The position numbers and the translations under genes are program-made. The notes under the pieces are model-generated. The model was not told where the DNA came from. It made no database searches and worked only from the letters and a program-made list of their open reading frames with translations. A stretch of DNA of 50,415 nucleotides from Candidatus Endomicrobiellum devescovinae (lineage in GTDB: Bacteria > Elusimicrobiota > Endomicrobiia > Endomicrobiales > Endomicrobiaceae): positions 1 to 50,415 of the forward strand of contig JAIRYK010000003.1 in assembly GCA_031267795.1 (NCBI GenBank). The letters run 5' to 3'. Of the stretch, positions 10,816 through 28,307 are shown in pieces (the first letter of the stretch is position 1; the number at the start of each line of letters is the position of its first letter).

Positions 10816-11574
10816 ATGAACTGTTTGGATTTAATCCAAGAAGCCGCTGTAAGAGTAGGAATAGTGCAGCCTGCTACTATTGAAAACATATCAAATCCAG
10901 ATCCTAGCAGAAAAGATCCAGATGCTATGATATTGCTGGGAGCGTTGAATGAAACAATGAGGCAGGTGTTGGTAAAAAATTTATTTGACCCATATTGCAT
11001 TTTAGCAAAGATTGCAATAACTGACGCTGCCACTGCCACTGCTGGAAACACGTATATGTTTCCAATATTGACGAAATGCGTAGATTTTGCCGGTTTATTG
11101 TCTTCATATTTTAATGTTGAGTGTAGCGACGGAAGCGTGCAGACGTTTTTTGAGACTGACCCAGATACTTTTGAAAAGTTTTGGAAAGACCCTGCAAGTA
11201 CCGCTCCAGAGCCTATACCAAATAAAAATATGTTTAAAATTTACAATGGACAAGTGTGTTTTATTTCAAGAAAAGTTTTTGATGCGGACTTTAAAATATC
11301 GACGATAAGGTTCAGCTATCGTAGCAGTTACGGCGTTATGCCGCAAGGAGCTACAATCCCAGTAAATACTTTTAGCCACGACTCTGACAATACGAGTATA
11401 GACAACGAGCTTTTGATAGCAGGGACGGTGTTAAATTATAAGGCATATCAAGGTATGGATTATCAATTTGACGCTCAAAAATTTAACGATTATCTAACAG
11501 CATTAGAACGCAATAGGCAACGCAATAATCTATTTAGAGATACATCTATGGGCAAACCTGGTGTAACGGAATAA
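10816..11574 (+). CDS. Head-tail adaptor / tail accessory factor (gp4/gp11-like)
   Basis: The 252-aa protein has the layout of adaptors that ring the portal in podoviruses. The N-terminal helix (CLDLIQEAAVRVGI) and ALNETMRQVLVKNL are typical. A central beta region follows, and near the C-terminus a helical pair (LLIAGTVLNYKAYQGMDY, then FNDYLTALERNRQR) recalls the family pattern of hydrophobic, Tyr/Lys-rich helices. It lies directly before the nozzle gene, as gp4 precedes gp10 in P22 and gp11 precedes gp12 in T7. Function: closes the portal and forms the nozzle docking site. Confidence 0.7.
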   Translation: MNCLDLIQEAAVRVGIVQPATIENISNPDPSRKDPDAMILLGALNETMRQVLVKNLFDPYCILAKIAITDAATATAGNTYMFPILTKCVDFAGLLSSYFNVECSDGSVQTFFETDPDTFEKFWKDPASTAPEPIPNKNMFKIYNGQVCFISRKVFDADFKISTIRFSYRSSYGVMPQGATIPVNTFSHDSDNTSIDNELLIAGTVLNYKAYQGMDYQFDAQKFNDYLTALERNRQRNNLFRDTSMGKPGVTE

Positions 11575-14500: not shown

Positions 14501-15793
14501 TTGAGATTGAGATTTTATTTTTACTATACGAAAACGTCTCTCGGAGATACTTTTGTTATAGGAACTAGCTACAACGGTGAAGATTCTGGTTTTTTTTGGG
14601 ATGATGAGAGGATAGCTCCCGTCTCATCCCGAAACTTTTTTATGAAAAATATTGTAGCTTTTTATCCCCCCCTATCTTACTATCTGGTAATTGCGGCTGA
14701 TCCGACAACAACTATGTCGCCAAAGACTATTTTTGACTTTACTGGAAGCAACGACTGGGTTGTTAAAGAAATTTCTGCGGAAATGATTTATACATCTGGC
14801 GCGGAAACTGAAGAATATTTTGTCGATGCACTGCCAACCTTTAAACACGTAACCAAAGATAATATAGAAGCGTTTAAAGCTGCGTACGGATATTTGATGA
14901 GCGGATTTTGGATTAGTCCGAATGATCCAGAAAAAGAAAAAAAGGAACATAATAACTGGGCGGATATTTTTATGCCCAAAACTAAGCTAATAGAAGTTAA
15001 AAGTAAAGATTTAGCAAGGATTAAAGAACATAGAGCATCTAGGGGTGATAGTCCATTACCTATCTCGGCGGTACAGGTTGCAAATTTTAGTTTAGATGTA
15101 ATTCCAATTTTTGCAGGGTCTCACCTTCTCACAAATTTTAGAAGCGTTCAGTATGTTATGAATTCTTATTATGGGACATGGAGCAAATGGGAAGACGTTA
15201 ACATGATAGACGGAATTTCGCATTTAGGCGAATTTTATTTTGTAAAACCTGAAGATATACCTGACCGTAGTGGTACTAGTTTTACCTATAACACGTCCGT
15301 TTTATGTAAATTTGACGACATGGCTTTTGGCGATTATGATAAAAAGGGAACTCTTCCAATTCAAATATCGTATCAAACGCCAGCGAACAACTTAGGAATA
15401 AATCAATACAAACTTTTGGAGAGGATAAAGATATTAGCTACCCAAAGCACGTTCTGGGGAACGCAAGCTAATTATTTAAGAATAACGATGTTTTCAGATT
15501 TTGGGCAAAATCCTACATACTGGTATCAGCATTCGTCAGAGATTGGGAAACAGCGTATAATGAAGTTGTTAAAACTAAATGAAGAAAAAGAACTTCATGA
15601 GTTATCTTTTCAAGAGATGAAAAAGTTTAAAGAATTGTACGCTACAGAAAGTTCTACTATAAAGCACGTAGACATGGGATTGTTGTGTAGTCCGCTAAAC
15701 AGATTGAGTTTGAAAGTTGAAATGGACATAAAAGAAGCAAACATTATAATTTACGGGTATGAAATATATCTAAAAATAATGAACAAAGTATAA
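11579..15793 (+). CDS. Giant tail nozzle/stabilisation protein (gp10/gp12-like)
   Basis: The N-terminal ~60 residues fit the family of podovirus nozzle proteins: PPMKGLNLYDNPFTMD, then ELKVRPGVVKLTSFYG, followed by beta-rich repeats with APDNSTELTDLQNITFYNG near residue 163. At 1404 aa it is about three times P22 gp10 and well above T7 gp12. A proline hinge with PTPPTPPVP (851-859) divides it into an N-terminal nozzle-like part and a C-terminal ~540-residue part of unknown fold. No separate tail-fibre or tail-spike gene is seen, so the C-terminal half may provide receptor binding. It follows the adaptor after four bases. Confidence 0.7.
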   Translation: MPDQRQKILLLPPMKGLNLYDNPFTMDAQFAEDLTNFMPPTTELKVRPGVVKLTSFYGAIRGMFSYAVGQVKNYGKNWYDQTISEGEYQSLLLKIVQGNGNSLIYSYNPLNNQYDVLQEVKEGEYSKDFAIYKHSLMMCVSKPELPMYIWSARNGWKNMKWVAPDNSTELTDLQNITFYNGMCLSNATGTFDIFICDATKINPQDPSLWDKAWSWFSPKFLGNMQISLEGIAKKGGSIMKMFTISKSGIETINSYFCVCTTLGEIIVWQGELKNPSSEVLLKNPNADPIADFQLVGRFEIPIPLNNNCFCQMEGDIIVATQNGLFSLNRVIFGQQTEITQSLESRINNVFSNYMFKDNAYQKFFGLFYYQKSRLLIFNVPDRMPQTLQSIGVGTLIAKGDELVLGSLSNDFVSTVIAGLKNFIGSYLYYHWIDYTLFIQFDDSAGKIIDEYLGIFAQFVTKEVTDPENPYKVTTQVTFFLQELLSSGIKKTELLAQPLVFTCPDFTAAVPSITFTNNLSWNESLKKTYQNITSYSYMFKESEAGDNADVVDTTITNVIPITKFFAHPTASSPFSNIYEGMQVNLDNIRLSYLAVNPLLPDLEPNTRAFFLRFGQKGFYPDGDLLDEIGVLEGNLYLDRAKNELVPQGTSPVAQIFFREITNHIPDFMGLAAQNYEYRYTFTLAEEITGKTREISARLFATMSQFSRQDTAYQCNIDMSMGWYVDDTAIPVSLTFNNAATVNNAIYKFPGYCIFLTSLWGFTEMASRSSTSGDYEFKDFTFNEGTILESSDGNGFKVVSIKTEWVSCPYFKDALVNAGLTEEHQTEDNYEQMVTKFGYTLAPFVCDITEAPPTPPTPPVPISINVEDLIEGSNLNAPLSLDFSGNIDDINYDEFQYKSYNDFSSKLNSYWCQNGTEYSGDQFLARPAFTPFGLDLVKEVGSVFVVNGDFFSLNPPAFTYEIKYVFSSQNLAQEHSLRLRFYFYYTKTSLGDTFVIGTSYNGEDSGFFWDDERIAPVSSRNFFMKNIVAFYPPLSYYLVIAADPTTTMSPKTIFDFTGSNDWVVKEISAEMIYTSGAETEEYFVDALPTFKHVTKDNIEAFKAAYGYLMSGFWISPNDPEKEKKEHNNWADIFMPKTKLIEVKSKDLARIKEHRASRGDSPLPISAVQVANFSLDVIPIFAGSHLLTNFRSVQYVMNSYYGTWSKWEDVNMIDGISHLGEFYFVKPEDIPDRSGTSFTYNTSVLCKFDDMAFGDYDKKGTLPIQISYQTPANNLGINQYKLLERIKILATQSTFWGTQANYLRITMFSDFGQNPTYWYQHSSEIGKQRIMKLLKLNEEKELHELSFQEMKKFKELYATESSTIKHVDMGLLCSPLNRLSLKVEMDIKEANIIIYGYEIYLKIMNKV

Positions 15794-15806: not shown

Positions 15807-16178
15807 ATGGATAGAGGAGTAGAAGAAGGTTTGTTAGGTGGTGGCAGTATGCTTGGCGGCGTGCTTTTGGGGAAACTTTTAAAGAAACTTTTAGAAAAGA
15901 AAGAAGATGAAGAAGATACGGAAAATCAGAGCAATAAGCCGAACAAAAAAGAACCTAAGGAAGTTGACGCTGAGATAGAAGAAGGCGACGACGAAAATGG
16001 GGATAGGAAACCTAAAGGGTTATCTTTAGAAGTTTTAAGCATAGGCGGAGTCCCGAAAAATAAAAAGATATTTGGCAATGATGATGAAAATGAAGAAGAC
16101 GGAGAGTATGCCAACGCTTTTGCGAAAGTTTTACAAAAACTAAAAAGCAAAAATTCTGGAAGCAAGTTGAGGTTATAA
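15807..16178 (+). CDS. Small acidic phage protein with glycine-rich N-terminus (123 aa)
   Basis: Residues ~8-25 form a short hydrophobic glycine-rich helix (LLGGGSMLGGVLLGKLLKKL), followed by about 55 charged residues that alternate Glu/Asp and Lys. Disorder is likely. It is the first of nine genes in the candidate ejection cluster; one base separates its stop from the next start. A short hydrophobic head with a long charged tail could suit a membrane-interacting virion protein or chaperone. No family recognised. Confidence 0.55.
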   Translation: MDRGVEEGLLGGGSMLGGVLLGKLLKKLLEKKEDEEDTENQSNKPNKKEPKEVDAEIEEGDDENGDRKPKGLSLEVLSIGGVPKNKKIFGNDDENEEDGEYANAFAKVLQKLKSKNSGSKLRL

Positions 16179-16179
16179 T

Positions 16180-17685
16180 ATGTCTACTGATATTACAAAA
16201 AGAAGATTGATAACCAAAGGACTTCAGACGAGGAGACTGGGCGGAGCAATACCGCAGTGGGAAGTTTTTAGTCCTGAACGTGGATATTCTCTAGGAAAAT
16301 TTGGAATGGACGAGGGAAAACAGAAAAGAATAGCCGAGAAAGCGCTGGCGGCTAGACAAAAAGCTCAGTACGCTTTTAACACAAATAGAAATTTTTATAA
16401 ATATTCAACCCACTCTGAAGATGGAGGAGTTGGCGGGAAAGCTGTGCCGATAGCATCTAAACATTTTGTTAAGTCGTCACATGGAAAACCTATAGGCGAT
16501 CCGGGAAGGATAGAGCGTTACCTTTATCGCCTGCATGATATTATTGACTCAGCAAAAAAAGAAGGCGTTTACCAAGCGATGGCGCCACATGATATGTATA
16601 GATTGACTGGGATTCCTTCCGACAGAAATGGAGCGCACACATTTCTGCAAACAATACTTGCAGCTGCGGAAAATCCATCTACGGCATTAAACAATCCTAC
16701 TATAAAAAAATCTATATCAAATAGTTTTGAAAGATGGCATAGAGGACAAAACCTAGATGAAGATTTACATAAACCAGAGATAACAAGTCTATGGAACACG
16801 TCTCAGCTGGCGAATGCGCAAAAAGAATATCTAACAGATCCATCTACCGCAAAAGCTCAAGGAATAGTTGACCATATAGAAAAGATGAAAGAGCAAATAA
16901 ATGCAGAAGCAGAGGCTAAAGATAAAAAACTTCGGTATGACAAATGGGAAAAAAAGCACGGCGACACAGCTGAAGAAGGATACGTAGAAGGGTTGTTAGG
17001 TCAGGACTACAGCGCCCCAGATAACCCATATTATCAGCAAGCGCAAAAAGAGCGAGCAGATCAGTCCTTAGATGAATATTTAGCTGCAGGAAAAGGAACT
17101 CTATCGCAAAAAAAGAAAGCAAAACATAAAAACCCTGATTTGTACGAGGCAGGATTTCCAGAAGGGCAGCAAACCGAAATTCCTGAGCGAAAATTTATAG
17201 AAGAACCAGAACTAAATATATCGGATATTGAAAAACCTAAAAAGCCTGATTTTCGTTTAATATTAGATTCGAATAAACGAAAAGAGGAGCAGCAATCGTA
17301 TGACAAAGAGTTAGACGATTATGAGCATGCAGTTACGAGCAGAATGCGAGAAGCCGACATGGCTGCGCAGTGGAATGATAAAATAATCGCAAGAAACAAA
17401 GCGTTAAAAAAAGAAAGACAGCAGCTGATAGCGGAAAATACGTTTGAAGATAATTTAAAAATGCAACGTAAGTTGTTAAAAGATAAGCGTAAAGAATACG
17501 AAAAAGCAAAGAACGAAAAATCAAGAGACAAAAGAGTTTTGGGTGCGCATGATTTTTGGAATGTAGTGAGAGGGAATACCAGTTCAACGCCCGACAGCGT
17601 GGGAAGTATCGGAGGAATAACTAGCAGCTTAGCAGCGGCTAATCAAGCTATACAGAAGGGTCCGCAGAATTTGAGGAGAATATAA
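16180..17685 (+). CDS. Candidate internal virion protein (501 aa)
   Basis: The N-terminal ~190 residues look globular and basic (for example RRLITKGLQTRRLGGAIPQW and later APHDMYRLTGIPSDR). Residues ~215-460 are highly charged, with Lys/Glu/Gln-rich coiled-coil predictions and a proline-rich break near 330-350. The C-terminus is Ser/Gly-rich. The next gene begins within its stop codon (TAATG). I recognise no enzyme motif. Position in the cluster after the nozzle gene suggests a packaged or ejected protein. Confidence 0.55.
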   Translation: MSTDITKRRLITKGLQTRRLGGAIPQWEVFSPERGYSLGKFGMDEGKQKRIAEKALAARQKAQYAFNTNRNFYKYSTHSEDGGVGGKAVPIASKHFVKSSHGKPIGDPGRIERYLYRLHDIIDSAKKEGVYQAMAPHDMYRLTGIPSDRNGAHTFLQTILAAAENPSTALNNPTIKKSISNSFERWHRGQNLDEDLHKPEITSLWNTSQLANAQKEYLTDPSTAKAQGIVDHIEKMKEQINAEAEAKDKKLRYDKWEKKHGDTAEEGYVEGLLGQDYSAPDNPYYQQAQKERADQSLDEYLAAGKGTLSQKKKAKHKNPDLYEAGFPEGQQTEIPERKFIEEPELNISDIEKPKKPDFRLILDSNKRKEEQQSYDKELDDYEHAVTSRMREADMAAQWNDKIIARNKALKKERQQLIAENTFEDNLKMQRKLLKDKRKEYEKAKNEKSRDKRVLGAHDFWNVVRGNTSSTPDSVGSIGGITSSLAAANQAIQKGPQNLRRI

Positions 17686-18641
17686 TGGCACAAACATTAC
17701 CTTACAACTATAATGAACGAATTGTCCCTGAAACTAGCGGATGGGGGTGGAGAGATACGGCAAGAAGTCATTTAAATAGAGGAAAGACGAAAGGGCTAGA
17801 CGCTTTCAATCGTATGATAGGAATGGCGAGGGGCGGCGGATTTAGCGGGACTGGCGAGGCGGACAGCCCGTTTGCGATGCAGCCATCAAAGAGAGAGAGA
17901 CTGTCTAATGCATATGGTAGAGTTAGGAACATCGCTAAATCGGAAGGAACGGCTAGCTTAGCTAGAGGAAAAGAATTTCTTGGCAACACGAGAAGGAAAG
18001 GTCTAGACGCTTTTTCGTCTGGCTGGAATAAAGCAAAAGGACTTTTTGAACGCCCCGAAGATGAGCCAGAAGAAGACTTAACAACTCTTAGCGAACAATC
18101 ATTGGAAATGAAGAAAGAAAAAGACACTGAAATTCGCTATCAAATAGAAAAGATTAAAAAAAAGTACGACAGTATGATTAAGTACGAGAAAGACCCGTTA
18201 GAGCGAAGAAGTTTAGAAATAGAGCGAGACATGAAAATAAGGAAGGCGTCTGGAAAGAAAGGGTCAGCTGCCGAAGAATTTATGATGGGAAAGGGGAACG
18301 ACGTTCTTTCTGCTATGAATAGTACGACAGATGCGGATGTAATTCCTGCAGGCTATAAAAGTTACGATGTGGATAGCAACCCCGACGAGATAGCAAGAGC
18401 AAGGACGTATAATAAGAAGTTGGGAGAAATGCATAATAGATGGGGAAAACCAGCGGCTACTGTAGGAAAAGGATTAGGCGCTTTTGCAGCGGCAAGTATG
18501 GGAGGTATTCCTGGACTTGTTGCAGGAACGGCATTATCAAAAGGAATTCCAATGGCGGCAGATTGGCTAATGAACAGAAACGCTCAAAAACACGAAGATC
18601 AAGACGCAGACGAAAGAAGATATAATCCAAATAGGTTATAA
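17685..18641 (+). CDS. Candidate internal virion protein with internal repeat (318 aa)
   Basis: A short repeat occurs twice, 69 residues apart: KGLDAF followed by a helix ending A-R/K-G (codons from 17790 and 17997). A central charged coiled coil (~145-190) follows. The C-terminal ~55 residues hold a glycine/alanine-rich amphipathic or membrane segment (VGKGLGAFAAASMGGIPGLV and on) ending in a charged tail. Such glycine-zipper segments are common in phage ejection proteins that form trans-envelope channels. Translational coupling to the neighbours is likely. Confidence 0.55.
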   Translation: MAQTLPYNYNERIVPETSGWGWRDTARSHLNRGKTKGLDAFNRMIGMARGGGFSGTGEADSPFAMQPSKRERLSNAYGRVRNIAKSEGTASLARGKEFLGNTRRKGLDAFSSGWNKAKGLFERPEDEPEEDLTTLSEQSLEMKKEKDTEIRYQIEKIKKKYDSMIKYEKDPLERRSLEIERDMKIRKASGKKGSAAEEFMMGKGNDVLSAMNSTTDADVIPAGYKSYDVDSNPDEIARARTYNKKLGEMHNRWGKPAATVGKGLGAFAAASMGGIPGLVAGTALSKGIPMAADWLMNRNAQKHEDQDADERRYNPNRL

Positions 18642-18643
18642 CA

Positions 18644-21640
18644 ATGGCAAAATTTATAACGAGGTCGTACACCGACCAAAAAACAGGCAAAATAATTAAA
18701 AAGAATTTCCGTGTTGACGACAATTATGAGTTGCGTAACAACGGTGGTTACGACGAGGATAGAAAGCAAAAATACACGGAAGCATTCCAAGACCAACCAG
18801 GAATGGCTAAAACACTCAGTAGGGCTGCATTACCGTCTGTTGTGGGAGCAGGATTAGGCGCAATAGCTAAATCTACACAAGGCGGTGCAGCGGCTGGAAA
18901 AGCTGCAAGCGCTTTAGGCGGCACTGCGTTAGCGTCAGCGGCAAATGCTTTTGCAAATTATCAAAATAGGGTTAATCCTAAAAGCAAAGCAGCAGCAGTA
19001 GGGTCTGGAGCACTATCTACAGCAGCGAATGCGTTTGCGGAAGCTAATCAACGAAGTATAGCAAGAGGATCAGGAGCGGGCGCATCTGCATTATCAGGAT
19101 TAGGTGCAGGTTTGGAAGGTGCATTGAAAGGAGGTTTATCAATGTTGCCTGGCGGCTCTTCGTTAGGACAGGCTGCATCGCCTCTTCTTGGCGGAATTTT
19201 CAATGCGATTAATAATAAAAATCCAGCGGCGTTGCTGTCTGGGTTGGCAGGAGCGGCAGGGAGCGTTCTTAGCAGCAAAACGCTTGGACAAGATATGCCT
19301 CAGTGGTTTAGAAAATCAGAAGCAAAAGATTATGCAGGAGGTACTTGGGGGCAAGGAAGCGATATAGAAGATTTATCCGACGAAGAACAAGCCAAGAGTA
19401 ATGAAGAATATTTGACGCAAAATCAACCGTCGGTTAGAAGCGATATGCCTACGGATTTTGATGGAACTGCACAAGATTGGATGTCCGACGCTAACGCAGA
19501 TACAAGGCAAGATGTTCAAGAGCAGAACCAAATGGACACATATAATGATAAATATCAAGAAGCTATAGACAAGGGTGGAACGGAAGCCGAAGCGGCGCAA
19601 GCTGGAGTAGAAGCGCAAAGGTATCAGAATCAACCTGCAGCAAGTTTAGAAGATATAGACGATATGACGGGCGGTCAATTTAAAACGCCGCAAGAAACGT
19701 TGCAACAAGGAGCTGACAGTGAATCTACCTCAACAAACGAAGATACTGAGTCCGTCGGAAAGGATACTACAGATGATACTAGCCAACCTGTTCGACGAAC
19801 AGATGAGCAAAATGTTCAGTCCTCAGGAAATGAAGGAAATGAAGGAAATCAGCAAGTTGCTGGTGCAGTACAAGGAGGGCAAGGACAAGTTGCCCCTCAA
19901 CAGCAGCAAGGGCAAGGTGGAGTTGTTAGCCAAGCGGGAGGAAATATTGGACAAGCTCCAGCAGGTACAGGAGCAGCTCAAGGAGTTGGACAGCAAGGAG
20001 CAGGCGTAGCTCAGCAGTTACAGCAAACACAGCAACCGCCAGCAGTGCAATCGGCACAAAATTTGCCGATGCCAAATGCTGCGAGAGAAAAAGTGCCTGC
20101 ACCGCCACCGCCTCCACCAGCGCCACCGCAAATTCAGCAGCAACCTGCGGCAACCCAATCTGCATTTGCGACAGGATTTTCTAGTCCTGCTGCCAAAATG
20201 GAGAGTGAGGCAAAAAGAACAGGAACAGCAAGATTAGCTCAACAGCAGCAAGTTGCGGCGCAAATTAACGCTCCTATGGCGGCTCAACCAGAACTGGCAG
20301 CCCCAGAAGCAGAAGCTGATATATCGCTTTTTGGCAACCAAGAAGGTATTGGCGAAGCAGGCGATTTGGGCGAAGCAGGGCAACCAGCAGGTGAAGCAGC
20401 AGCAGGAGGACTAGCAGGAGCAGCAGGAGAAGCGCCAGAAGGAGCAGCAGGACCAGTGGTAGAACCAAAAGTTCCAGAACCGCCAGCAGCGCCATCTTTT
20501 TCAGGATTAACAAAACCTGAAGGCGAAGATGGACAATATAAATGGGGAAGAGGGGAAGTACCGTCGTTTTTTCCGAAAGAAGATTTAAGGAATAGAGATA
20601 CAGAAACAGATTTGATGCCGAACTACGAAGGGAAGTCGCAAGCTGAAATTGATGCCGAAAGTCAAAGGTTAATGGCGGAGCAGGAAGAATATTTAAGGAA
20701 TGCATCGCCGCAAGGTTCTACAAATTATTATAACGAGAACGCTAATAAATATGAATTTTTATCAGGATATGGCTATTTGCAAGAAAAAGCGTCGCAATTA
20801 GTTCCGCAAACAGTTTTTTCTGTGCAAGGCGACGCCGATTACGAAGCACCGAATGAAAACGATTCTATTACAGATAATGAAGGTAGAATCTTTATAAGAA
20901 CTCCTTTGGGCATGTTGCAAGTAGGCGATAAAAGCAAGAAGCCGTTATCTGAGCAATATAGACTTGCTGTGCAGCGAATTGCCGCAAACTTATCTCTGAA
21001 TGAAAGTGAGCCGTCGGAAGAGTATATCAAAGATGCCGAAGACTTATACAATCAATTGCCTGCAGATGTAAAAGGATTTTCGGAAACGCCGTCTAGAGAC
21101 AGAAAAGAAGAAACGTTGAGAAATGTGCGCATGTCTCTTTCTAGCAAAATGAATGAGAGATCTTTGAAAGAAGAAATGACTAAACTTACAGACAATGCTA
21201 AAAAATGGAATCTTAGAGCGAAAGAGTTAGATAAATTAAGGCAAATATATAAAGCAAGAAAGAAACAGTTAAGAGAATCCAAGTATGGAAAAAAACGAGA
21301 AGTAGACGACTGGGCAAAGGAGCAAGTAGGCTTGCTGACTGAAAGCGAACGTCAAGAGGCGAAAACGGCGAGAATCCAAGAAGCAAGAGAAAAAGCGGAG
21401 AGAGGCGTATCGTCTGAAGGTCTAACTAACAGACAAAAAATAGAATATTTAAGGCAACAAGAGCTGGTAGATTTAAATAGAGAACTTCCTTATAGAGATC
21501 GTTTGAAGCAACAATATTCACGTTTGGAAGAAGAAGCTAAACATCTTCCCGAACTGCAGAGAGGAACGCCTGAATCGTTACGCAGAGACGCAGAAATGAG
21601 ACGTTTGCAAAATTTAATAACTAGAATCAAACCTATGTAA
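18644..21640 (+). CDS. Ala/Gly/Gln-rich candidate ejection protein (998 aa)
   Basis: Residues ~50-220 are Ala/Gly-rich with possible membrane segments and an internal repeat (AASALGGTALASAANAFA and later GALSTAANAFAEANQR). Residues ~225-470 are acidic and Gln-rich. A proline tract (APPPPPPAPP) lies near 485-495, and an Ala/Gly/Glu-rich segment follows. Residues ~650-998 are charged and helical with coiled coils. Composition resembles P22 gp20 (Ala/Gln-rich, 471 aa) but at twice the length. It is the largest member of the cluster. No enzymatic motif recognised. Confidence 0.6.
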   Translation: MAKFITRSYTDQKTGKIIKKNFRVDDNYELRNNGGYDEDRKQKYTEAFQDQPGMAKTLSRAALPSVVGAGLGAIAKSTQGGAAAGKAASALGGTALASAANAFANYQNRVNPKSKAAAVGSGALSTAANAFAEANQRSIARGSGAGASALSGLGAGLEGALKGGLSMLPGGSSLGQAASPLLGGIFNAINNKNPAALLSGLAGAAGSVLSSKTLGQDMPQWFRKSEAKDYAGGTWGQGSDIEDLSDEEQAKSNEEYLTQNQPSVRSDMPTDFDGTAQDWMSDANADTRQDVQEQNQMDTYNDKYQEAIDKGGTEAEAAQAGVEAQRYQNQPAASLEDIDDMTGGQFKTPQETLQQGADSESTSTNEDTESVGKDTTDDTSQPVRRTDEQNVQSSGNEGNEGNQQVAGAVQGGQGQVAPQQQQGQGGVVSQAGGNIGQAPAGTGAAQGVGQQGAGVAQQLQQTQQPPAVQSAQNLPMPNAAREKVPAPPPPPPAPPQIQQQPAATQSAFATGFSSPAAKMESEAKRTGTARLAQQQQVAAQINAPMAAQPELAAPEAEADISLFGNQEGIGEAGDLGEAGQPAGEAAAGGLAGAAGEAPEGAAGPVVEPKVPEPPAAPSFSGLTKPEGEDGQYKWGRGEVPSFFPKEDLRNRDTETDLMPNYEGKSQAEIDAESQRLMAEQEEYLRNASPQGSTNYYNENANKYEFLSGYGYLQEKASQLVPQTVFSVQGDADYEAPNENDSITDNEGRIFIRTPLGMLQVGDKSKKPLSEQYRLAVQRIAANLSLNESEPSEEYIKDAEDLYNQLPADVKGFSETPSRDRKEETLRNVRMSLSSKMNERSLKEEMTKLTDNAKKWNLRAKELDKLRQIYKARKKQLRESKYGKKREVDDWAKEQVGLLTESERQEAKTARIQEAREKAERGVSSEGLTNRQKIEYLRQQELVDLNRELPYRDRLKQQYSRLEEEAKHLPELQRGTPESLRRDAEMRRLQNLITRIKPM

Positions 21641-21656
21641 TTTAGAGAGAAAAATA

Positions 21657-24146
21657 ATGCCATTACCAGACCCTAATAAGATACAACAACAGCAAGCAGT
21701 GCAAATTAGCGCTCCGACAAAGACTACAAGAGCCAACAATTTGCTAAAACAGGCTCAGGAAAAGATTGAAGACCCGAGCGATATTGGAGCGCAGTTAATG
21801 CAGGCTGGCGATAATATGATACAGCAATCGTATGCTGACGACGCTAAGCCCGATATTGTGGATTGGGGAGCGTCTAATATTCCTAAAGCTGCTGGGGCGA
21901 TAAAGAGTGCGGCGTCTAATTTCTGGGACAATATCAGAAATTTGGGTAAGCCTCCAGCTCCTACACCCACAGAACCGCCGACTGCAGATTTGCCGATGGC
22001 GCAACGTCCGACAGACGCAAGCCAAGTGCGTCTTAAGCCTTTAAGCCCAGAACTAAAGACGGAAAGAGACGCTAGAATAAATGCAGCCAATCAAGCATTG
22101 CAAAATCAGTCTATTGTTCCTCATCAGGTGCAGGGGGTGAACGCTGAAGGCGCAAGACTCATGCAGCAATATGCCATAGAAAGCAATGAAGCTGGCAACC
22201 CCGAATTGTTATTAACGCCTGAACAAGTTAAGTCTGTGAGAGTTGCTAGCGGTACTGCAGTGCCTACCGCTCCGAACGTTTCACGTAATAGAGATATGAG
22301 GTTAACTCATCAAGAAGTTTCGGCACAAGCACGGCAAAGACAACAAGAGATAGATGATATGCGTAGAAACAGCATGCCTGCTAGAAACAGGCAAGAAGTA
22401 GAAGAAGGAAACGAGCGTGCTAGATTTGAGAGAATGGGCGAAGATTATGCAAGAAGGCAAGGGCAGCGAGAAATAGACGAAAGAGAACAAAGAAGAGCAA
22501 ACCCGCAAGGGATAGGCGATAGATTGCATAACTTTTGGGAAACGATGCCAAATCCGTTATCTGCAATAAAGGGAGCTTTTACTGATAGAAGAAGAGAAGA
22601 GAATCCAGAAGATATGGAACTAGAAGAACATAATCCCACAGACCCAGAAGCGCCTGATGTTATGAGGAATCTTGGAGGATTAGCTGCCGAAGCGAGAGAG
22701 ATACCGCCCGAAGATGAAGATGTAGATGTAGACGAGTTAGAAGATATAAGACCAGCAGGAGCAGCAGCAGCGGCAGGAAGACGAGAAGATCCAAGAAGAA
22801 GACTTCAAGCAGAATTAGAAAGATTAGTGCCGCTACCGCCATTTGATTTTGCTAAGTCTACGCCAGAGCAATATAGACAGAGATTGGAATATTTGGATAA
22901 TCGTAGACGTGAATACGGAGATACGGAAGACCTACAAAATGAAGTTTCAGCTACAAGACAAGCTATGCAAAGAAAAGCTGAAGCGACAAGATTAGGAAAT
23001 ATTAGACAAGGACGAGCTACTCAATTTTCTCGTCAGGCAATGGAATATCTATCGCCAGATTCTGAACAGGAATATCTCCGTTATCCGCAAACTTTGCTTA
23101 ACTTGACGGACGGACAAAATTTGACTGGTATGCCAACAGACGAGCTGGCAGCAATAGCACAACGCAACTATATGCTAAGTACTCGTGGTCATGGCTACGC
23201 TTCCCAAATTACGAGAGAGCAAGCCCTGCAGCATGCTAACGAACTGAGAAGAATAGAGCAAGAATTGACCCGTCGTGGAGAACAAGACACAGTAAGGGAG
23301 GCACTATATCATGCTACTAACCTTGCACATCACAGGCTTAATAGAAATGTTGGCGAGCATGTTGCTGCAACCGATAAAGATTTGTACGAAACGATGTCAC
23401 CGGACTATATGAGATCGCTTTCAGAAGACCCACAGGTTGAGAGAGTCCCGTTTGAATATGCGAAAGCAACGCCTGAGCAGCTAGCAGCCAAAAATGCTGA
23501 AATACGGAGATTACATTCAGTGCCTGACACAATGACGCATAAAGAAATAGCACAAAGATTTGCAGAAGAGAGAGAGAATGCGAGGCTGCAAGGATATGAT
23601 AATCCTTTATTAGCAGATATGTCTTTTTCGGAACAGGTCTTAGCCGATGAGAGACGAGAAGAAGAGATACGGGAAGCTCAAAGGAATGAAGAACGCCGTA
23701 GAATAATAGAAGACAGCGGACTGTTTGAAGACACAGAGAGACCTGATGACGATTCTTTCCAACAATTAGCAGGAAGAATTGCAGGAATACAAGAAAACAG
23801 ACGAAATAGCGCGTTTTTGGCGCAGAAGCAAGCGGAGAGATCTGAAGAATTAGCAAGATTAAGTAGGGAAAGCGCAGGAAACATACAAAGAAATAGAGAT
23901 GAAATTGTAAGACAAAGAGCAGCCAGAGATGAAGAGCAAAGAAGAGCAGCGCTAAGAAGAGACGCAGAACTAGAAAGACAAGAAGCGGCAAGAGTAGCTA
24001 GAGAAGAAAGACAAAGAGTATCCAGACAAGAAGCAGAGGAAAGAGTACAAAGACAGATAGCAGAACGAGACAGGAAAATAAGAGAGAGAGCAGCATTTAG
24101 GGAGGATAGAGATAAAGATAGAACTCCGCTCAGATTTAGAAAATAG
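21657..24146 (+). CDS. Arg/Glu-rich coiled-coil candidate ejection protein (829 aa)
   Basis: The sequence is dominated by Arg, Glu, Gln and Ala, with long coiled coils at ~215-275 and over the last ~250 residues. A motif of the form PF[DE][FY]AK[SA]TPEQ occurs twice, at residues 395-405 and 598-608, which suggests duplicated domains of ~200 residues. A short acidic stretch with DEDVDVDELED lies near 355. The strongly basic C-terminal arm may bind DNA in the capsid. No membrane segment is obvious. It lies between the 998-aa and 338-aa cluster members. Confidence 0.6.
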   Translation: MPLPDPNKIQQQQAVQISAPTKTTRANNLLKQAQEKIEDPSDIGAQLMQAGDNMIQQSYADDAKPDIVDWGASNIPKAAGAIKSAASNFWDNIRNLGKPPAPTPTEPPTADLPMAQRPTDASQVRLKPLSPELKTERDARINAANQALQNQSIVPHQVQGVNAEGARLMQQYAIESNEAGNPELLLTPEQVKSVRVASGTAVPTAPNVSRNRDMRLTHQEVSAQARQRQQEIDDMRRNSMPARNRQEVEEGNERARFERMGEDYARRQGQREIDEREQRRANPQGIGDRLHNFWETMPNPLSAIKGAFTDRRREENPEDMELEEHNPTDPEAPDVMRNLGGLAAEAREIPPEDEDVDVDELEDIRPAGAAAAAGRREDPRRRLQAELERLVPLPPFDFAKSTPEQYRQRLEYLDNRRREYGDTEDLQNEVSATRQAMQRKAEATRLGNIRQGRATQFSRQAMEYLSPDSEQEYLRYPQTLLNLTDGQNLTGMPTDELAAIAQRNYMLSTRGHGYASQITREQALQHANELRRIEQELTRRGEQDTVREALYHATNLAHHRLNRNVGEHVAATDKDLYETMSPDYMRSLSEDPQVERVPFEYAKATPEQLAAKNAEIRRLHSVPDTMTHKEIAQRFAEERENARLQGYDNPLLADMSFSEQVLADERREEEIREAQRNEERRRIIEDSGLFEDTERPDDDSFQQLAGRIAGIQENRRNSAFLAQKQAERSEELARLSRESAGNIQRNRDEIVRQRAARDEEQRRAALRRDAELERQEAARVAREERQRVSRQEAEERVQRQIAERDRKIRERAAFREDRDKDRTPLRFRK

Positions 24147-24162
24147 TCAATAAGGAGAATAT

Positions 24163-25179
24163 ATGCTAGAAGTAAACGACCCATACGATTATAATCTGCA
24201 AAATATCAGAAGCGAAATTAAGAATAAATGGGACGACCAACAGGAAGATGAGCTAAGAAAAAGACAACAAAACGGCGTTGTAGGGCTTGGGGGCGGTTCG
24301 TGGACGTCTAGGATAAACAGGTTTAATGCAAATAAGCGAGACGAGTACATGAAAGCTTTGGAAGCTGCCAACAATCAGCGAAGACAAGATACCCAGCAAT
24401 CGTTAGCGCAGAGACAACAAGCGTTTTCTGAAGCGAGCAATTACTCTAATTTAGCTAGACTTGAAAAAGAAAGAACAGAGAATATGGAAGCAAGAAAGAG
24501 GCAGGAAGAAGAACAGAAGAGACAGCTTGGAATGCAACATGAACTATCGCAACAGCAAGCGCAAGAACAAAAATCTGCAAGGTTATCTGCAGAGGGGCTT
24601 GCAAAAGAAAAATTTGCATATCAAAAACAAAGAGACACTGTGGCGGATAAAGATGCAGCGATACTTAGAAATGTGCAACTAAGACAACAGAGTATAAATA
24701 GAAGATTTGAAGCTAGAAGATTAAGTATGCAAGAGTATCAGCAGCAAACTAGAGCAAATCTTGAAATGATAGAAGCACAAACAAGGAATTTGCAATTAAA
24801 ACAAGAGGCATCGCAACTAGCAAAAAGCGGAGCAGACCCAGATACTATGATGCAACAGTTGCAAGGGATGATGGGTCAAATGCAGGGAACTGGGAGAGAT
24901 ATGAACAATGCTGGCTTGGCACAACAGAATGCTGGCATGAGTTTATACAACAGCTTAAATGCAACGCAACAACAAGAGTATCAGCGAGAATTAGCAAGAT
25001 ATATGGATTATAATCATATGGCGCAGAGAGCAAAAGAAATTGGAGAACAAAGAGCCTACCAAGAAGAAATGCAAAGAGCCGCCGATAAAGCTGCAAAATC
25101 TGGAGCTTTCGCAAGTATTATAACTAATGTTATAGGAACAGGGGCGCAGCTATTATTAAATAAACCGGGAGCGAAATAA
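24163..25179 (+). CDS. Gln-rich coiled-coil candidate ejection protein (338 aa)
   Basis: Almost the entire protein is predicted helical and rich in Gln, Arg, Glu, Ala and Met, with a long coiled coil over ~75-290. The C-terminal ~25 residues are hydrophobic (GAFASIITNVIGTGAQLLLN) and could insert in a membrane. A clean SD (AAGGAG) precedes the ATG. The stop overlaps the next start (TAATG). The coiled coil plus terminal hydrophobic segment suits a pilot protein. P22 gp7 (229 aa) is the nearest analogue by size and position only. Confidence 0.55.
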   Translation: MLEVNDPYDYNLQNIRSEIKNKWDDQQEDELRKRQQNGVVGLGGGSWTSRINRFNANKRDEYMKALEAANNQRRQDTQQSLAQRQQAFSEASNYSNLARLEKERTENMEARKRQEEEQKRQLGMQHELSQQQAQEQKSARLSAEGLAKEKFAYQKQRDTVADKDAAILRNVQLRQQSINRRFEARRLSMQEYQQQTRANLEMIEAQTRNLQLKQEASQLAKSGADPDTMMQQLQGMMGQMQGTGRDMNNAGLAQQNAGMSLYNSLNATQQQEYQRELARYMDYNHMAQRAKEIGEQRAYQEEMQRAADKAAKSGAFASIITNVIGTGAQLLLNKPGAK

Positions 25180-26057
25180 TGGACATTAATAGCGTTGAAA
25201 AAATGTTAAAAACTAACAAAACTAAACTAAATGCAATAACTGGTGCAAGGCTAGAACACGAGAAAGAAACGTCTGCATCTGACGTCGCAGATAGAATTTT
25301 GCCGTTTTTAAAAATGCCGTCTGCCCAAGAAATTGCGTTACATCCCTGGCTTGCTGGCAGCGTGTCGGTTTTGGAGTCTATTCTGGCTGCAAAATTAATG
25401 AAAAATGTTAGTGAAGAGAAAAAAAGGAACAGAAATAAAGCGGTGGAGTTATTGAACAAAGAAGAAGAAGAAGAAGGAAAATCAGAGAAGGAAAGATTGA
25501 TAGCGTTGACGAACAAGCTGATGGGCTATCATGAAACGAAGGAGACTCTTGCTCAAGAACAGGCGAAAGCGAACATTGCAAAAGCATATCAAGACATTGA
25601 AGAGAGCAAAGGAAAATTTCCTTTAGGAATGAAACAAATAGAATATAAGAACCAAAAAGAAGCTGCCAAAGCCACTAAAGACGCTGAGGACAAATCTTAC
25701 AAGGAATCACAAGATAGAACAGCAAACCAAATGCAGCAAGTTAAAGCGTTGCACGGAAAGGTATCGGAGGCAGTAGAACAACATATGTTGGCAGCGGCAG
25801 CGAAAGGTGAGTTTGACATTAAAAACTATCGAGAGCGTGCAAAAAATGTTTGGGACGGTAAGCCAATTGTGCAAGGTTGGTTTGGAACTGGGAAAGATAG
25901 ATATGGTCTGGCAGTAAAAAAAGCTGAAGAGAACAAAGCCGAAGATAAAAAAGAAGGAAATTCAGGTTGGGTTATTCAAACTGTTGAAGATGAAAAAACT
26001 GGTAAAATCTATAAAAGAAAATATAATAAAATTACTGGAGAGAGTGAAAGACTGTGA
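25179..26057 (+). CDS. Charged candidate internal virion protein (292 aa)
   Basis: Residues ~40-75 contain a moderately hydrophobic stretch (ALHPWLAGSVSVLESILAAK). The middle is Lys/Glu/Gln-rich and helical. The last ~30 residues form a hairpin-like module (EDEKTGKIYKRKYN) that resembles the N-terminus of the 998-aa cluster protein (DQKTGKIIKKNF), possibly a shared interaction element. Start and stop overlap both neighbours by one and four bases. No known family recognised. Confidence 0.55.
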   Translation: MDINSVEKMLKTNKTKLNAITGARLEHEKETSASDVADRILPFLKMPSAQEIALHPWLAGSVSVLESILAAKLMKNVSEEKKRNRNKAVELLNKEEEEEGKSEKERLIALTNKLMGYHETKETLAQEQAKANIAKAYQDIEESKGKFPLGMKQIEYKNQKEAAKATKDAEDKSYKESQDRTANQMQQVKALHGKVSEAVEQHMLAAAAKGEFDIKNYRERAKNVWDGKPIVQGWFGTGKDRYGLAVKKAEENKAEDKKEGNSGWVIQTVEDEKTGKIYKRKYNKITGESERL

Positions 26058-27835
26058 AAATTTTATCAGAAGAGCCATTAGAATTTGGTCTGAAAGTTTT
26101 AGATGAGACGCCTATTAAAGAAAGGAAAAGCTTAGACGTAAAGAGAGCGTTGCTAACGGCAGCCAACGGAGCTGCGTTAGGAGCGTTTCCAGAGGTGGCA
26201 GGGCAAGTTAAAGGGCAGATGCGAGGTATGCGTGACTTCGCCAAATCAATGATGTTAGACCACCGATTAATTAACACTAGAAGCGATGCAGCTAGAGAAT
26301 TGAATAGAAATGAATATTTAAAGACTAAAAAAAATATACAGCATGACATAGACGAGTACGCTAAAGAACATCCGACAATGAGCATGATTGCGGATATGGC
26401 TGGAAGCATACCTACGGCAGTGCTAATTCCAGGCGGTTCAGCTGTTAGAGGAGCTAAACTCTTGTCCACGATGGGCAAAGCGGCTAGAGCTGGAGCGATA
26501 TATGGAGGCTCTAGAGGTTTTGGAGAAAGCGTAAATGCTGACGATAATTTGGAAGACATAATTAAGTCTTCGTTAAAAGGAGCAGCGGTAGGCGGAGCTA
26601 TTGGCGGAGCAGCTGGAGGAATCTTATCTCCGTTTACAAAATCTAAGCTTGCTAGCTTAGAGAAAGCTATTGGCAAAAACAGAATAGAAGAATCTATCAA
26701 AAAAGGAATTCCTCTATTAGAAGATGGTGGAGAGAGAGTAATGCAGGTTGCGAGAAGTATTAAAACTAAAGGAAACCCTAAAGCGTTGCAGAGGTTTGTA
26801 AACTTTGAGAAGAAGCTAGAAGGTGTGCAGAAAAATAAAATAAATAAAATTATAGAAGAAAACCTTTCAGATAAAAATTATAATGACATGTTGATGAAAA
26901 TTCAGAAAGAGGGGGAAAGTATATATAATCCTCTCTATGCAGAAGCGATGAAAGCTGGAGAAATAGCAAGACCTAGAACGCAAAATAGTAATGTATTAAA
27001 AGATTATTTTAAGAAGGCTAGGAAGTTTTCTGACGATTTAAAAGGATTGCCTGATAATGACATTCGCGTACTTCAACGAGTAAAAGAGAAATTAGGCGAC
27101 GATATAGCTAAATACGAAAAATTTGGCGAAAAATCTACTGCTAGAGATTTGGAAACTTTAAACAAAAATTTAGTCCAGGACATAGATGATAGCGTTTTTC
27201 TACACGGTAAAGCTAGAGAAGCATTTGCAAAAACTAAACGCAAAGAAGAAGTCATGCATCGTGGTTTCAAAGACATTCCAAAATCGTCGTTAGAAGAAAT
27301 AGAAGCGATGTCGCCTATTGATTTGCCAAAAGGCGAACAGTCCGAATTGTTGAAGGCAGGCGCTGCTCAGTATTTTAAAAACAAAGCGTTTAACGCACCA
27401 AAAACTAATGCTAATATTTTTAGAAATGTTTTTGCTGATGATGAGTTAGTGCGGTTAGTTAAGGCTAAAATTATGTCTCCAGAAGGAACGAAAAAAATAA
27501 GAGACGCCGTATATTCTGCGGATAAGAGCATTGACAATATACACAGCCTTACTAGCGGCTCGCAAACAGCAGAGAAGTTAATGCAGGCACAAGATAATAA
27601 TCCATTACGGTGGATTACATCCACCAAAAAAAAAGGTATCCAACTCTCTGATAAAATATGGGATAAGATTATAGGTAGTGGCGACGGTAGAACTGCCAAA
27701 TACCTGACAGATAGTAAAGCGTTAAAATCGGCAGTGAAGAGAGAAGGAATTAAAAGACCAGTGACAAAAGATGATATATTATATAAACTGCTAGGCGGTC
27801 AGAACGGCAGAAAGAAAAAGGAGTACTATAAATGA
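26054..27835 (+). CDS. Candidate DNA-transfer / ejection protein with glycine zippers (593 aa)
   Basis: GTG start, overlapping the previous stop (GTGA). Residues ~100-195 contain hydrophobic, glycine-zipper-rich segments (MIADMAGSIPTAVLIPGG, then GAAVGGAIGGAAGGILSP). The layout recalls phage ejection proteins, including the ~609-aa P22 gp16, that insert in the host envelope. Residues ~205-593 are basic and helical. I find no transglycosylase Glu motif or other catalytic site. Being the last large gene of the module also matches gp16, but the resemblance is architectural. Confidence 0.6.
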   Translation: MKILSEEPLEFGLKVLDETPIKERKSLDVKRALLTAANGAALGAFPEVAGQVKGQMRGMRDFAKSMMLDHRLINTRSDAARELNRNEYLKTKKNIQHDIDEYAKEHPTMSMIADMAGSIPTAVLIPGGSAVRGAKLLSTMGKAARAGAIYGGSRGFGESVNADDNLEDIIKSSLKGAAVGGAIGGAAGGILSPFTKSKLASLEKAIGKNRIEESIKKGIPLLEDGGERVMQVARSIKTKGNPKALQRFVNFEKKLEGVQKNKINKIIEENLSDKNYNDMLMKIQKEGESIYNPLYAEAMKAGEIARPRTQNSNVLKDYFKKARKFSDDLKGLPDNDIRVLQRVKEKLGDDIAKYEKFGEKSTARDLETLNKNLVQDIDDSVFLHGKAREAFAKTKRKEEVMHRGFKDIPKSSLEEIEAMSPIDLPKGEQSELLKAGAAQYFKNKAFNAPKTNANIFRNVFADDELVRLVKAKIMSPEGTKKIRDAVYSADKSIDNIHSLTSGSQTAEKLMQAQDNNPLRWITSTKKKGIQLSDKIWDKIIGSGDGRTAKYLTDSKALKSAVKREGIKRPVTKDDILYKLLGGQNGRKKKEYYK

Positions 27836-28032
27836 ACCCATTAGCATTATTAGGCGGTTTAGGTAGCATATTTGGTGGTGGTGGCAGTAATAATGGACAA
27901 CAGCAACAGCAAGGAGGTTTAGGAGGCATACTAAGCGGAGCGTTATCAGGCAGAATGATGGGCGGACCAATGGGGGCATTAGGCGGTGGAGCGTTAGGAT
28001 TGTTGGGTAATCTGTTTGGCGGTAACAAATAA
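27832..28032 (+). CDS. Glycine-rich 66-aa protein, last phage gene
   Basis: ATGA overlap with the upstream gene. The protein is Gly/Leu-rich with a central run of five Gln and repeated GG-hydrophobic-GG units typical of glycine zippers (LLGGLGSIFGGGG at the start, MGALGGGALGLLGNLFGG at the end). It could be a small membrane-active virion component or a holin-like peptide. A GGAG element follows the stop without a gene, so this may be where a longer operon has been cut. Confidence 0.55.
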   Translation: MNPLALLGGLGSIFGGGGSNNGQQQQQGGLGGILSGALSGRMMGGPMGALGGGALGLLGNLFGGNK

Positions 28033-28047
28033 GGAGAAAGTACGGTT

Positions 28048-28080
28048 TAAGTTTCTATAATTTTTCTATAAAAAAACTTA
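28048..28080 (+). terminator. Weak AT-rich stem after the last phage gene
   Basis: TAAGTTT (28048-28054) and AAACTTA (28074-28080) form a 7-bp stem with a 19-base AT-rich loop. No T run follows on the plus strand. It is the only terminator-like structure at the end of the 26-kb operon, so efficient termination here is doubtful. Confidence 0.3.
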
Positions 28081-28148
28081 TAATGCTCACATGTGTTTAC
28101 AATATTTACCAAAACTTGATAGCATTCTCTGGACGATAAAATGGTAAT

Positions 28149-28166
28149 TCGTTGAAAAATCAACGA
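28149..28166 (+). other. Hairpin in the phage-host junction region
   Basis: TCGTTGA (28149-28155) and TCAACGA (28160-28166) form a perfect 7-bp stem around AAAA. With no T run, it could be an RNA hairpin, an operator, or part of the integration region. The rest of the 275-bp gap 28033-28307 holds the elements listed separately and no further gene. Confidence 0.35.
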
Positions 28167-28174
28167 TATTTAAT

Positions 28175-28189
28175 GTTGTATAATACAAC
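28175..28189 (+). promoter_or_regulatory. Palindromic operator candidate containing a perfect -10 element
   Basis: GTTGTATAATACAAC is perfectly symmetric about one central base. A consensus -10, TATAAT, lies inside it at 28179-28184, although no clear -35 is found at 16-18 bases. A regulator bound here would block a promoter for the glucan phosphorylase gene. Confidence 0.5.
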
Positions 28190-28206
28190 TCATCTTCAGG
28201 GCGAAC

Positions 28207-28233
28207 TTTAAAATTATTTTATATAATTTTAAA
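28207..28233. repeat. AT-only inverted repeat upstream of glucan phosphorylase
   Basis: TTTAAAATTAT (28207-28217) is repeated inverted as ATAATTTTAAA (28223-28233) around five bases. It contains a second TATAAT (28222-28227). It may be an UP-like or easily melted element, but in AT-rich DNA such symmetry can arise by chance. Confidence 0.35.
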
Positions 28234-28279
28234 AAGATAAGTGCATATTTTTAATAAGGAAATGCGTACAGTTTCCAAT

Positions 28280-28294
28280 ATACAAACTTTGTAT
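28280..28294 (+). promoter_or_regulatory. Second palindrome with the same half-site, abutting the ribosome-binding site
   Basis: ATACAAACTTTGTAT is perfectly symmetric about one base and reuses the ATACAA/TTGTAT half-sites of the element at 28175-28189 in opposite order. It ends one base before the AAAGGAG SD (28296-28302) of the glucan phosphorylase gene, so it could act on DNA or as an RNA hairpin near the SD. Confidence 0.4.
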
Positions 28295-28307
28295 TAAAGG
28301 AGCTAGT

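What the first reader, a model, noticed from the sequence alone, without database searches (positions are those of the whole stretch)
15807..28032. Nine-gene, 12-kb cluster of putative ejection proteins
Nine overlapping or nearly contiguous genes (123, 501, 318, 998, 829, 338, 292, 593 and 66 aa; ~4,060 residues) encode Gln-, Ala-, Gly- or Arg-rich coiled-coil proteins with glycine-zipper or hydrophobic termini. P22 uses three ejection proteins (gp7, gp20, gp16) and T7 four. This set may be an unusually large pilot or capsid-core apparatus for crossing a difficult envelope, and it is my leading candidate for an undescribed system.
Basis: partly seen in the sequence, partly recalled or inferred. 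Interest (0 to 1): 0.8.

Follow-up and report, generated by a model that had tools for sequence, protein, structure and literature searches.

The report
Oversized DNA-ejection gene block in prophage
A virus dormant in a bacterium of the termite gut, from a group that lives inside protists, devotes about a third of its genome to proteins that look like the set short-tailed viruses shoot into a cell ahead of their DNA: the usual three plus six extra ones, and none of the nine contains a single cysteine.

Summary
In detail: nine tightly packed + strand genes (4,058 residues) at 15807-28032, all with good coding signal, directly behind the tail-nozzle gene of a podovirus-type prophage. The prophage (at most 37 kb) lies between apt and glgP in a genome of the termite-gut genus Endomicrobiellum; its left arm is on another contig.

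The reading as ejection proteins is largely supported. The last three large genes (338, 292, 593 aa) sit where Mx9, RHph_I3_18, Mwe-JY13 and ctMlz233 carry a three-gene set with ejection-protein family matches. Profiles from those phages find the 338 and 593 aa proteins, the 292 aa protein only weakly. The other six are lineage-specific; the 998 aa protein, and by position the 829 and 66 aa proteins, recur in sister prophages.

A test independent of alignment: all nine lack cysteine. Ejection proteins of eight reference phages have 3 cysteines in 13,796 residues (22 of 25 proteins free of it), other annotated proteins of at least 150 aa 337 in 37,329 (23 of 101 free).

At 33% of the prophage the block is proportionally the largest of nine compared (others 9-17%). 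A capsid core is not supported. The role of the extra proteins is unknown. New variant of a known kind.

The parts
1854..3230 (+). terminase large subunit
   Evidence: Pfam Terminase_3 8.8e-16; phrog_2 8e-26
3232..5820 (+). portal protein (862 aa) with long Gln-rich C-terminus, possibly a P22-type barrel
   Evidence: phrog_12082 2.5e-54; profile A1 to PDB 7sfs (Gene 3 protein) 5.5e-5 in the C-terminal part
6827..7807 (+). probable scaffold (326 aa), Cys-free
   Evidence: position and conservation in relatives; no significant family match
7867..9159 (+). major capsid protein
   Evidence: phrog_9953 6.8e-28
10816..11574 (+). P22 gp4-like tail adaptor
   Evidence: 31.6 bits to the four-phage profile, best null 7.6; phrog_6013 'tail protein' 9.6e-7
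11579..15793 (+). tail nozzle/stabilisation protein, enlarged to 1404 aa
   Evidence: 56.9 bits to the four-phage nozzle profile, best null 3.2; also matches phrog_5107, labelled 'amidase', 8.9e-20
15807..16178 (+). A123: Cys-free, glycine-rich hydrophobic N-terminus, acidic body; putative extra ejection protein
   Evidence: operon position; 0 Cys; no family
16180..17685 (+). B501: Cys-free; putative extra ejection protein
   Evidence: operon position; 0 Cys; found only in its own genome, 1 of 76
17685..18641 (+). C318: Cys-free, C-terminal glycine zipper (about 257-296); putative extra ejection protein
   Evidence: only a marginal family match (phrog_30761 7.7e-3, unknown function)
18644..21640 (+). 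D998: Cys-free, N-terminal Gly/Ala zipper region (about 53-215), low-complexity Q/A/P middle; conserved in sister prophages
   Evidence: G016:C10 5.5e-30; L112 hhalign 2.8e-4; 0 Cys
21657..24146 (+). E829: Cys-free, Arg-rich (13.0%) and Lys-poor (2.7%); positional counterpart in sister prophage L112 (773 aa, K 0.8%, R 10.0%)
   Evidence: sequence match to L112E not found; 1 of 76 genomes, its own
24163..25179 (+). F338: first member of the conserved triad (gp7/gp14-like place), C-terminal hydrophobic segment
   Evidence: 15.6 bits to the four-phage profile, best null 6.5; L112F hhalign 3.7e-5
25179..26057 (+). G292: second member of the triad (gp20/gp15-like place)
   Evidence: 8.5 bits to the four-phage profile, best null 5.5: weak; position
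26054..27835 (+). H593: third member of the triad (gp16-like place), glycine zipper and hydrophobic segments about 107-196
   Evidence: phrog_5880 4.1e-22 (best stretch 78-188), phrog_342 3.9e-6; 16.6 bits to the four-phage profile, best null 2.2; blastp hits in 6 other Endomicrobia loci
27832..28032 (+). I66: 36% Gly peptide, last gene of the late operon; counterparts by position and composition only, 128 aa (L112) and 89 aa (L149)
   Evidence: no alignment hit
28033..28307 (.). right prophage/host junction lies in this stretch (attR not pinned)
   Evidence: apt and glgP 141 bases apart in G009

Best explanation
This is the late-operon ejection-protein block of a temperate, P22/Mx8-like short-tailed phage integrated in an Endomicrobiellum genome. 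F338-G292-H593 are the conserved triad. A123, B501, C318, D998, E829 and I66 are lineage-specific additions of the same functional class. Inferred mechanism: the proteins are co-packaged in the head near a barrel-type portal, leave through portal and nozzle ahead of the DNA in unfolded form, and refold in the envelope. The hydrophobic or glycine-zipper segments of H, F, C, D and I would enter membranes, and the remaining helical or disordered proteins would line or scaffold a trans-envelope conduit or travel on into the cytoplasm. Shown here: gene order, operon, distant homology of F, H, adaptor and nozzle, partial synteny with sister prophages, and cysteine exclusion. Inferred: virion location, ejection, conduit formation, and the role of every extra protein.
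For: Order portal-(scaffold by position)-MCP-adaptor-nozzle-triad is the same in Mx9, RHph_I3_18, Mwe-JY13 and ctMlz233. Profiles built from those four phages score nozzle 56.9, adaptor 31.6, H593 16.6, F338 15.6, G292 8.5 bits; best of 273 null sequences 3.2, 7.6, 2.2, 6.5, 5.5. H593 matches phrog_5880 (4.1e-22), as does RHph_I3_18's third triad protein (6.1e-59). The first triad protein matches phrog_6121 'virion structural protein' in the three phages scanned; Mx9's third and RHph's first match 'DNA ejection protein' families at 5.1e-9 and 1.9e-9. Sister prophages: L112 has D, a 773 aa protein, F, G, H and a 128 aa peptide in the window's order, with detectable similarity for D, F and H; G016:C10 has nozzle, two small genes, D, and at the end an 89 aa Gly-rich peptide. 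Cysteine: 0 in 4,058 residues, 43.7 expected at the rate of the other 12 prophage genes of the window. In eight reference phages ejection proteins have 3 Cys in 13,796 residues, 22 of 25 Cys-free; the other annotated CDS of at least 150 aa in the stretches fetched have 337 in 37,329 residues, 23 of 101 Cys-free, Fisher p 2e-9.
Against: No match of H's profile to any solved structure; the AlphaFold model of H593 is unusable (pLDDT 37.1). Of three third-triad proteins scanned only RHph's matched phrog_5880; Mx9's and ctMlz233's did not. B and E have no relative in the other 75 family genomes; A, C, F, G and I were not searched there. The G292 match is weak, and L112F did not show up with the four-phage F profile. 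In G016 the 366 aa protein in H's place does not match the H profile and the stretch before it is decayed. Cysteine-free proteins are not rare outside the ejection set: 7 of 8 scaffolds, tail needles and three MCPs among 23 of 101, so the mark does not prove ejection. No virion data exist.
Confidence: 0.7

Rival explanations
1. Only F-G-H (perhaps with I) are ejection proteins; A-E are an accessory insertion of other internal or assembly proteins, such as extra scaffold or head-filling proteins that are never injected.
For: The triad alone fills the ejection place in four reference phages; A-E match none of those profiles above null; scaffolds are also Cys-free in 7 of 8 phages; A-E sit as one block before the triad.
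Against: A scaffold candidate already exists at 6827-7807; D, C and A carry Gly/Ala or hydrophobic membrane-type segments; D and E keep their place next to F-I in a sister prophage.
Confidence: 0.21
2. A-E, above all D998 and E829, are external tail parts (fibres or adhesins), since no tailspike was recognised in the prophage.
For: No tailspike or fibre family was matched by the window and C7 proteins scanned (small genes not all scanned); long low-complexity proteins can be fibres.
Against: D998 and E829 are low in hydrophobics and rich in Q/A/R/E; no fibre family match; the nozzle itself is enlarged (1404 aa, 2780 aa in G016) and is the better candidate for receptor binding.
Confidence: 0.05
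3. Decaying prophage with drifting low-complexity genes of no present function.
For: Several relatives carry broken remnants (L130, L131, L132; decayed stretch in L148); the host group has reduced genomes.
Against: Nine of nine frames open with normal codon usage and tight spacing; open frames for integrase, RecT, exonuclease and head/tail genes; zero cysteine kept over 4,058 residues.
Confidence: 0.04

Closest known systems
Triad of Mx9 / RHph_I3_18 / Mwe-JY13 / ctMlz233 (Mx8-like podoviruses)
   Same: Position directly behind adaptor and nozzle; order about 300-340, 440-710, 670-730 aa; F, H and nozzle detectably related; nearly no cysteine
   Different: Three (Mx9 four) genes, 4.4-5.1 kb, 9-12% of the genome, against nine genes, 12.2 kb, 33% here; no match of A-E or I above null there; F338 has no S74 domain match, unlike L103F and RHph's first protein as annotated
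P22/Sf6 ejection proteins gp7-gp20-gp16
   Same: Gene order small-medium-large; barrel-type portal likely here too; Cys-free in 5 of 6
   Different: H's profile matches no solved structure (the other eight proteins were not searched against PDB); three genes, 9.5-10.2% of the genome
T7 gp14-gp15-gp16 and phiKMV gp35-37 core
   Same: Internal proteins ejected before DNA; Cys-free in 5 of 6; H593 has a partial match to phrog_342, 'internal virion protein with endolysin domain', 3.9e-6
   Different: T7 type has a head core and a barrel-less portal (PMC8954989, passages); no lysozyme/transglycosylase domain found in the nine proteins
crAss001 cargo proteins gp45-gp50
   Same: Several cargo proteins in one short-tailed phage; extrusion with partial unfolding proposed (PMC10172136, passages)
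   Different: Those include three RNA-polymerase-associated proteins; about 103 kb genome; no sequence relation tested

Membership tests
Podophage ejection proteins (P22/Mx8-like triad) | Gene block immediately downstream of adaptor and nozzle in the late operon | tested here: met
Podophage ejection proteins (P22/Mx8-like triad) | F, G, H: sequence/profile relation to the triad of related phages | tested here: met
   F338 and H593 above all 273 nulls; G292 only weakly; H593 phrog_5880
Podophage ejection proteins (P22/Mx8-like triad) | A123, B501, C318, D998, E829, I66: sequence relation to any ejection protein | tested here: not met
   no PHROG or Pfam family of known function; no match to the four-phage profiles above null
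   9 of 9; reference rate 22 of 25 against 23 of 101
Podophage ejection proteins (P22/Mx8-like triad) | Membrane-spanning elements in gp14- and gp16-like members | tested here: inconclusive
   hydropathy only: F338 310-334 and H593 107-141, 169-196
Podophage ejection proteins (P22/Mx8-like triad) | Present inside the virion, injected with DNA | not testable with these tools
   needs virion proteomics and cell fractionation
T7-type capsid core | Head core stack with barrel-less portal | tested here: inconclusive
   portal C-terminus resembles P22/Sf6-type portals, 5.5e-5 in a Gln-rich region: argues against a core, no structure
T7-type capsid core | Transglycosylase domain in the gp16-like protein | tested here: not met
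   no such Pfam domain in H593

The most novel reading that the evidence does not exclude
The six extra proteins form a second, lineage-specific injection module adapted to a bacterium that lives in a eukaryotic cytoplasm. Its Arg-for-Lys proteins (E829; 773 aa counterpart with 6 Lys) would be delivered effectors or conduit parts whose lysine avoidance is a response to exposure to the protist's ubiquitin system. In addition, near-total cysteine exclusion would be a general physical rule for proteins extruded through a phage portal, usable together with gene position to find unknown ejected proteins by composition.
Probability: 0.12. Interest if true: 0.85.

Novelty: new variant of a known kind. 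Interest (0 to 1): 0.5.

Why it matters
It suggests that the ejection set of a small short-tailed phage can grow from three genes to nine and take a third of the genome. It also gives a simple mark that needs no alignment: in eight reference phages ejection proteins carry about forty times fewer cysteines per residue than the other annotated proteins, which can be tested on any phage. Phages of this host lineage seem undescribed: two searches listed no paper on an Endomicrobium phage by title, the comparative genome paper on Endomicrobia has no occurrence of 'phage' or 'virus' in its main text (PMC11257099), and the one termite-symbiont phage paper seen concerns an Azobacteroides phage (PMC5478533, passages).

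Tried and rejected
Megablast of 15-32 kb against phage records: none. tblastn of H593 and of the L103 H protein against phage records: none. Four viral-contig scans for MCP or H relatives gave nothing; an alignment scan was impossible. In the 80 viral-contig loci brought in by the portal, the H profile found one 127 aa ORF in L042 at 1.2e-5, upstream of the portal, not followed up. PDB sequence searches with the H profile and two nozzle proteins: none. A repeat shared by E829 and L112E was guessed and rejected: E829 scored 0.4 bits, shuffles up to 4.7. A candidate 11-base att repeat is within chance (shuffles up to 12). Direct repeats in the cluster: only short, diverged families among the 20 of 49 shown. 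tRNA/Rfam: two host tRNAs only.

Cysteine controls. In one search I chose the non-ejection proteins by hand (49, plus 8 scaffolds; 11 of 49 Cys-free) and left out small, cut or unassigned genes. One search took all mechanical ORFs of at least 150 aa (12 of 109 Cys-free), but its starts run upstream of the annotated ones and so add cysteines; it is superseded, which takes the annotated, uncut, unspliced non-ejection CDS of at least 150 aa in the eight stretches, coordinates typed (23 of 101; T7 gp10B, a joined CDS, left out). This mend weakens the contrast between proteins, hardly that per residue; I lowered confidence from 0.72 to 0.70. L130F was translated in a wrong frame (47 aa); its rows there and are to be ignored.
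Full report
What is there. All nine ORFs are present at 15807-28032 with the stated lengths, 4,058 residues in all. They follow the 11579-15793 gene after 13 bases and one another within -4 to 16 bases; in all nine the annotated frame scores best of six by codon usage. Pfam gives no family above its cut-off for any of the nine. PHROGs gives a strong match only for H593 (phrog_5880 4.1e-22, best stretch 78-188; phrog_342 3.9e-6) and marginal ones to families of unknown function for I66 (1.4e-3) and C318 (7.7e-3).

Setting. The window starts at the end of contig C2. Contig C7, reversed, ends with the same 85 bases and carries RecT, YqaJ exonuclease, HTH, repressor-like and integrase genes, then apt. 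In G009 apt and glgP lie 141 bases apart, so the prophage occupies at most 37.0 kb between them. The att sites were not pinned. Five of the fetched contigs of relatives are identical to named public contigs of Endomicrobia, among them 'Candidatus Endomicrobiellum roisinitermitis' for G016, which the search tool puts in the same genus as the window's genome. That members of this group live inside termite-gut flagellates is from the literature (PMC11257099, title and start of abstract); it was not tested for this genome.

Which phage kind. Terminase, portal, MCP, adaptor and nozzle are recognisable. Portal tblastn gives 10 records: Mx8 (twice), Mx9, RHph_I3_18, Mwe-JY13, ctMlz233 and four further phages, all under 25% identity. 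Annotated records of four of these share the order portal, scaffold (by position), MCP, adaptor, nozzle, then a triad of about 300-340, 440-710 and 670-730 aa; Mx9 has a further 120 aa gene inside it. The first triad protein matches phrog_6121 in the three scanned. The nozzle also matches phrog_5107, labelled 'amidase' (8.9e-20); I take the label to be inherited from other members, since the four-phage nozzle profile fits too.

The triad. Profiles from the four phages, tested on the window proteins and 273 reversed or shuffled sequences, find nozzle, adaptor, H593 and F338 clearly and G292 marginally; A-E and I are not found above null. H homologs occur in 11 of 76 family genomes, the window's own included, several as fragments in decayed remnants. 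One (L104) ends in an LPD3 polyvalent-protein domain, 8.3e-10. The order F-G-H matches the gp14-gp15-gp16-like operon described in a review (PMC8954989, passages).

The additions. D998 has a relative in G016:C10 (5.5e-30; 46% over 186 residues) and a shorter match in L112. In L112 D, a 773 aa protein, F, G, H and a 128 aa peptide follow in the window's order; D, F and H are alignable, the other three agree by position only. In G016:C10 the nozzle (2780 aa) is followed by 152 and 70 aa genes, D, a decayed stretch, a 366 aa protein in H's place that does not match the H profile and an 89 aa Gly-rich peptide. E829 and its counterpart are not alignable but share length class, place and an Arg-for-Lys bias: K/(K+R) 0.17 and 0.07, while of 94 mechanical ORFs of at least 100 aa with at least 10 K+R from five Endomicrobia loci one had 0.18 and the next 0.38. 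Arg codons in E829 are mostly AGA (73 of 108), so high G+C does not explain the bias. B501 was found only in its own genome (1 of 76).

Cysteine exclusion. None of the nine proteins has cysteine; 43.7 would be expected at the rate of the other twelve prophage genes in the window, two of which (142 and 326 aa) are Cys-free too. The cluster proteins scored in L112 (6), L103 (3), L104 (1) and G016:C10 (152, 70, 815, 366, 86 and 89 aa) are Cys-free, and L130H; L130G has one. In P22, Sf6, T7, phiKMV, Mx9, RHph_I3_18, Mwe-JY13 and ctMlz233, 22 of 25 ejection proteins are Cys-free, 3 Cys in 13,796 residues, 0.02%. The remaining annotated CDS of at least 150 aa in the fetched stretches are Cys-free in 23 of 101, 337 Cys in 37,329 residues, 0.90%; scaffolds, two tail needles and three MCPs are among the 23. 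So the mark is strong per residue but not exclusive. A plausible reason is passage through the portal in unfolded form and through an oxidising periplasm; this is inference. Four literature searches did not turn up the rule (0 papers; listings only, with 0 occurrences of the cysteine phrase in the papers listed), and the review of ejection proteins has no occurrence of 'cystein' or 'disulfide' in its main text. The library holds open-licence papers only.

Size. The block is 12,226 bp, 33.0% of the at most 37.0 kb prophage; the ejection blocks of the eight reference phages are 9.2-17.1%. Larger absolute sets exist, for example crAss001 cargo proteins (PMC10172136, passages) and giant-phage head proteins (PMC5694885, passages).

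Mechanism and limits. Most likely all nine are head-packaged and leave ahead of DNA to build a trans-envelope conduit, with zipper or hydrophobic segments in C, D, F, H and I for membranes. A T7-like core is less likely since the portal C-terminus resembles P22/Sf6-type portals (5.5e-5 in a Gln-rich stretch). No structure, virion or infection data support any of this directly; the H593 model was unusable.

Noticed in passing
window 21657-24146; L112 14736-17057 (-); L105 2518-3165 (-); L150 973-1416 (+): Arg-rich, Lys-poor, Cys-free proteins in prophages and prophage fragments of Endomicrobiellum: K/(K+R) 0.17, 0.07, 0.00 and 0.00; the last two, both from G016, begin MSPVR.
   Followed up: partly
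window 11579-15793; L148 6667-15009; L137 26753-28363: The nozzle protein grows from 536 aa (Mx9) to 1404 aa (window) to 2780 aa (G016); the insertion may be the receptor-binding part, since no tailspike was recognised.
   Followed up: partly
window 28308-30899: Host alpha-glucan phosphorylase gene (named by eye) next to the prophage has an in-frame TGA at 28791; the G009 relative has one TAG in the matched frame.
   Followed up: partly
L105 3626-3913 (-): A small protein that reads like a J-domain (DnaJ) protein, by eye, follows the scaffold gene in the G016 prophage fragment; Mx9 also carries a putative DnaJ-like gene.
   Followed up: no
prophage, C7:1-8824 and window 1-28032: No endolysin, holin or spanin family was recognised in the proteins scanned, apart from the 'amidase' label of the PHROG that the nozzle matches; small genes were not all scanned.
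   Followed up: partly
L104 13777-16230 (+): H homolog carries a C-terminal LPD3 polyvalent-protein domain, suggesting that some third-triad proteins deliver extra domains.
   Followed up: no
L149 736-5572 (-); L150 2193-2765 (-): Family of about 190-215 aa similar proteins with signal-peptide-like starts (MKKIVMATITSMTILANV...), in several copies beside the G016 prophage fragments.
   Followed up: no
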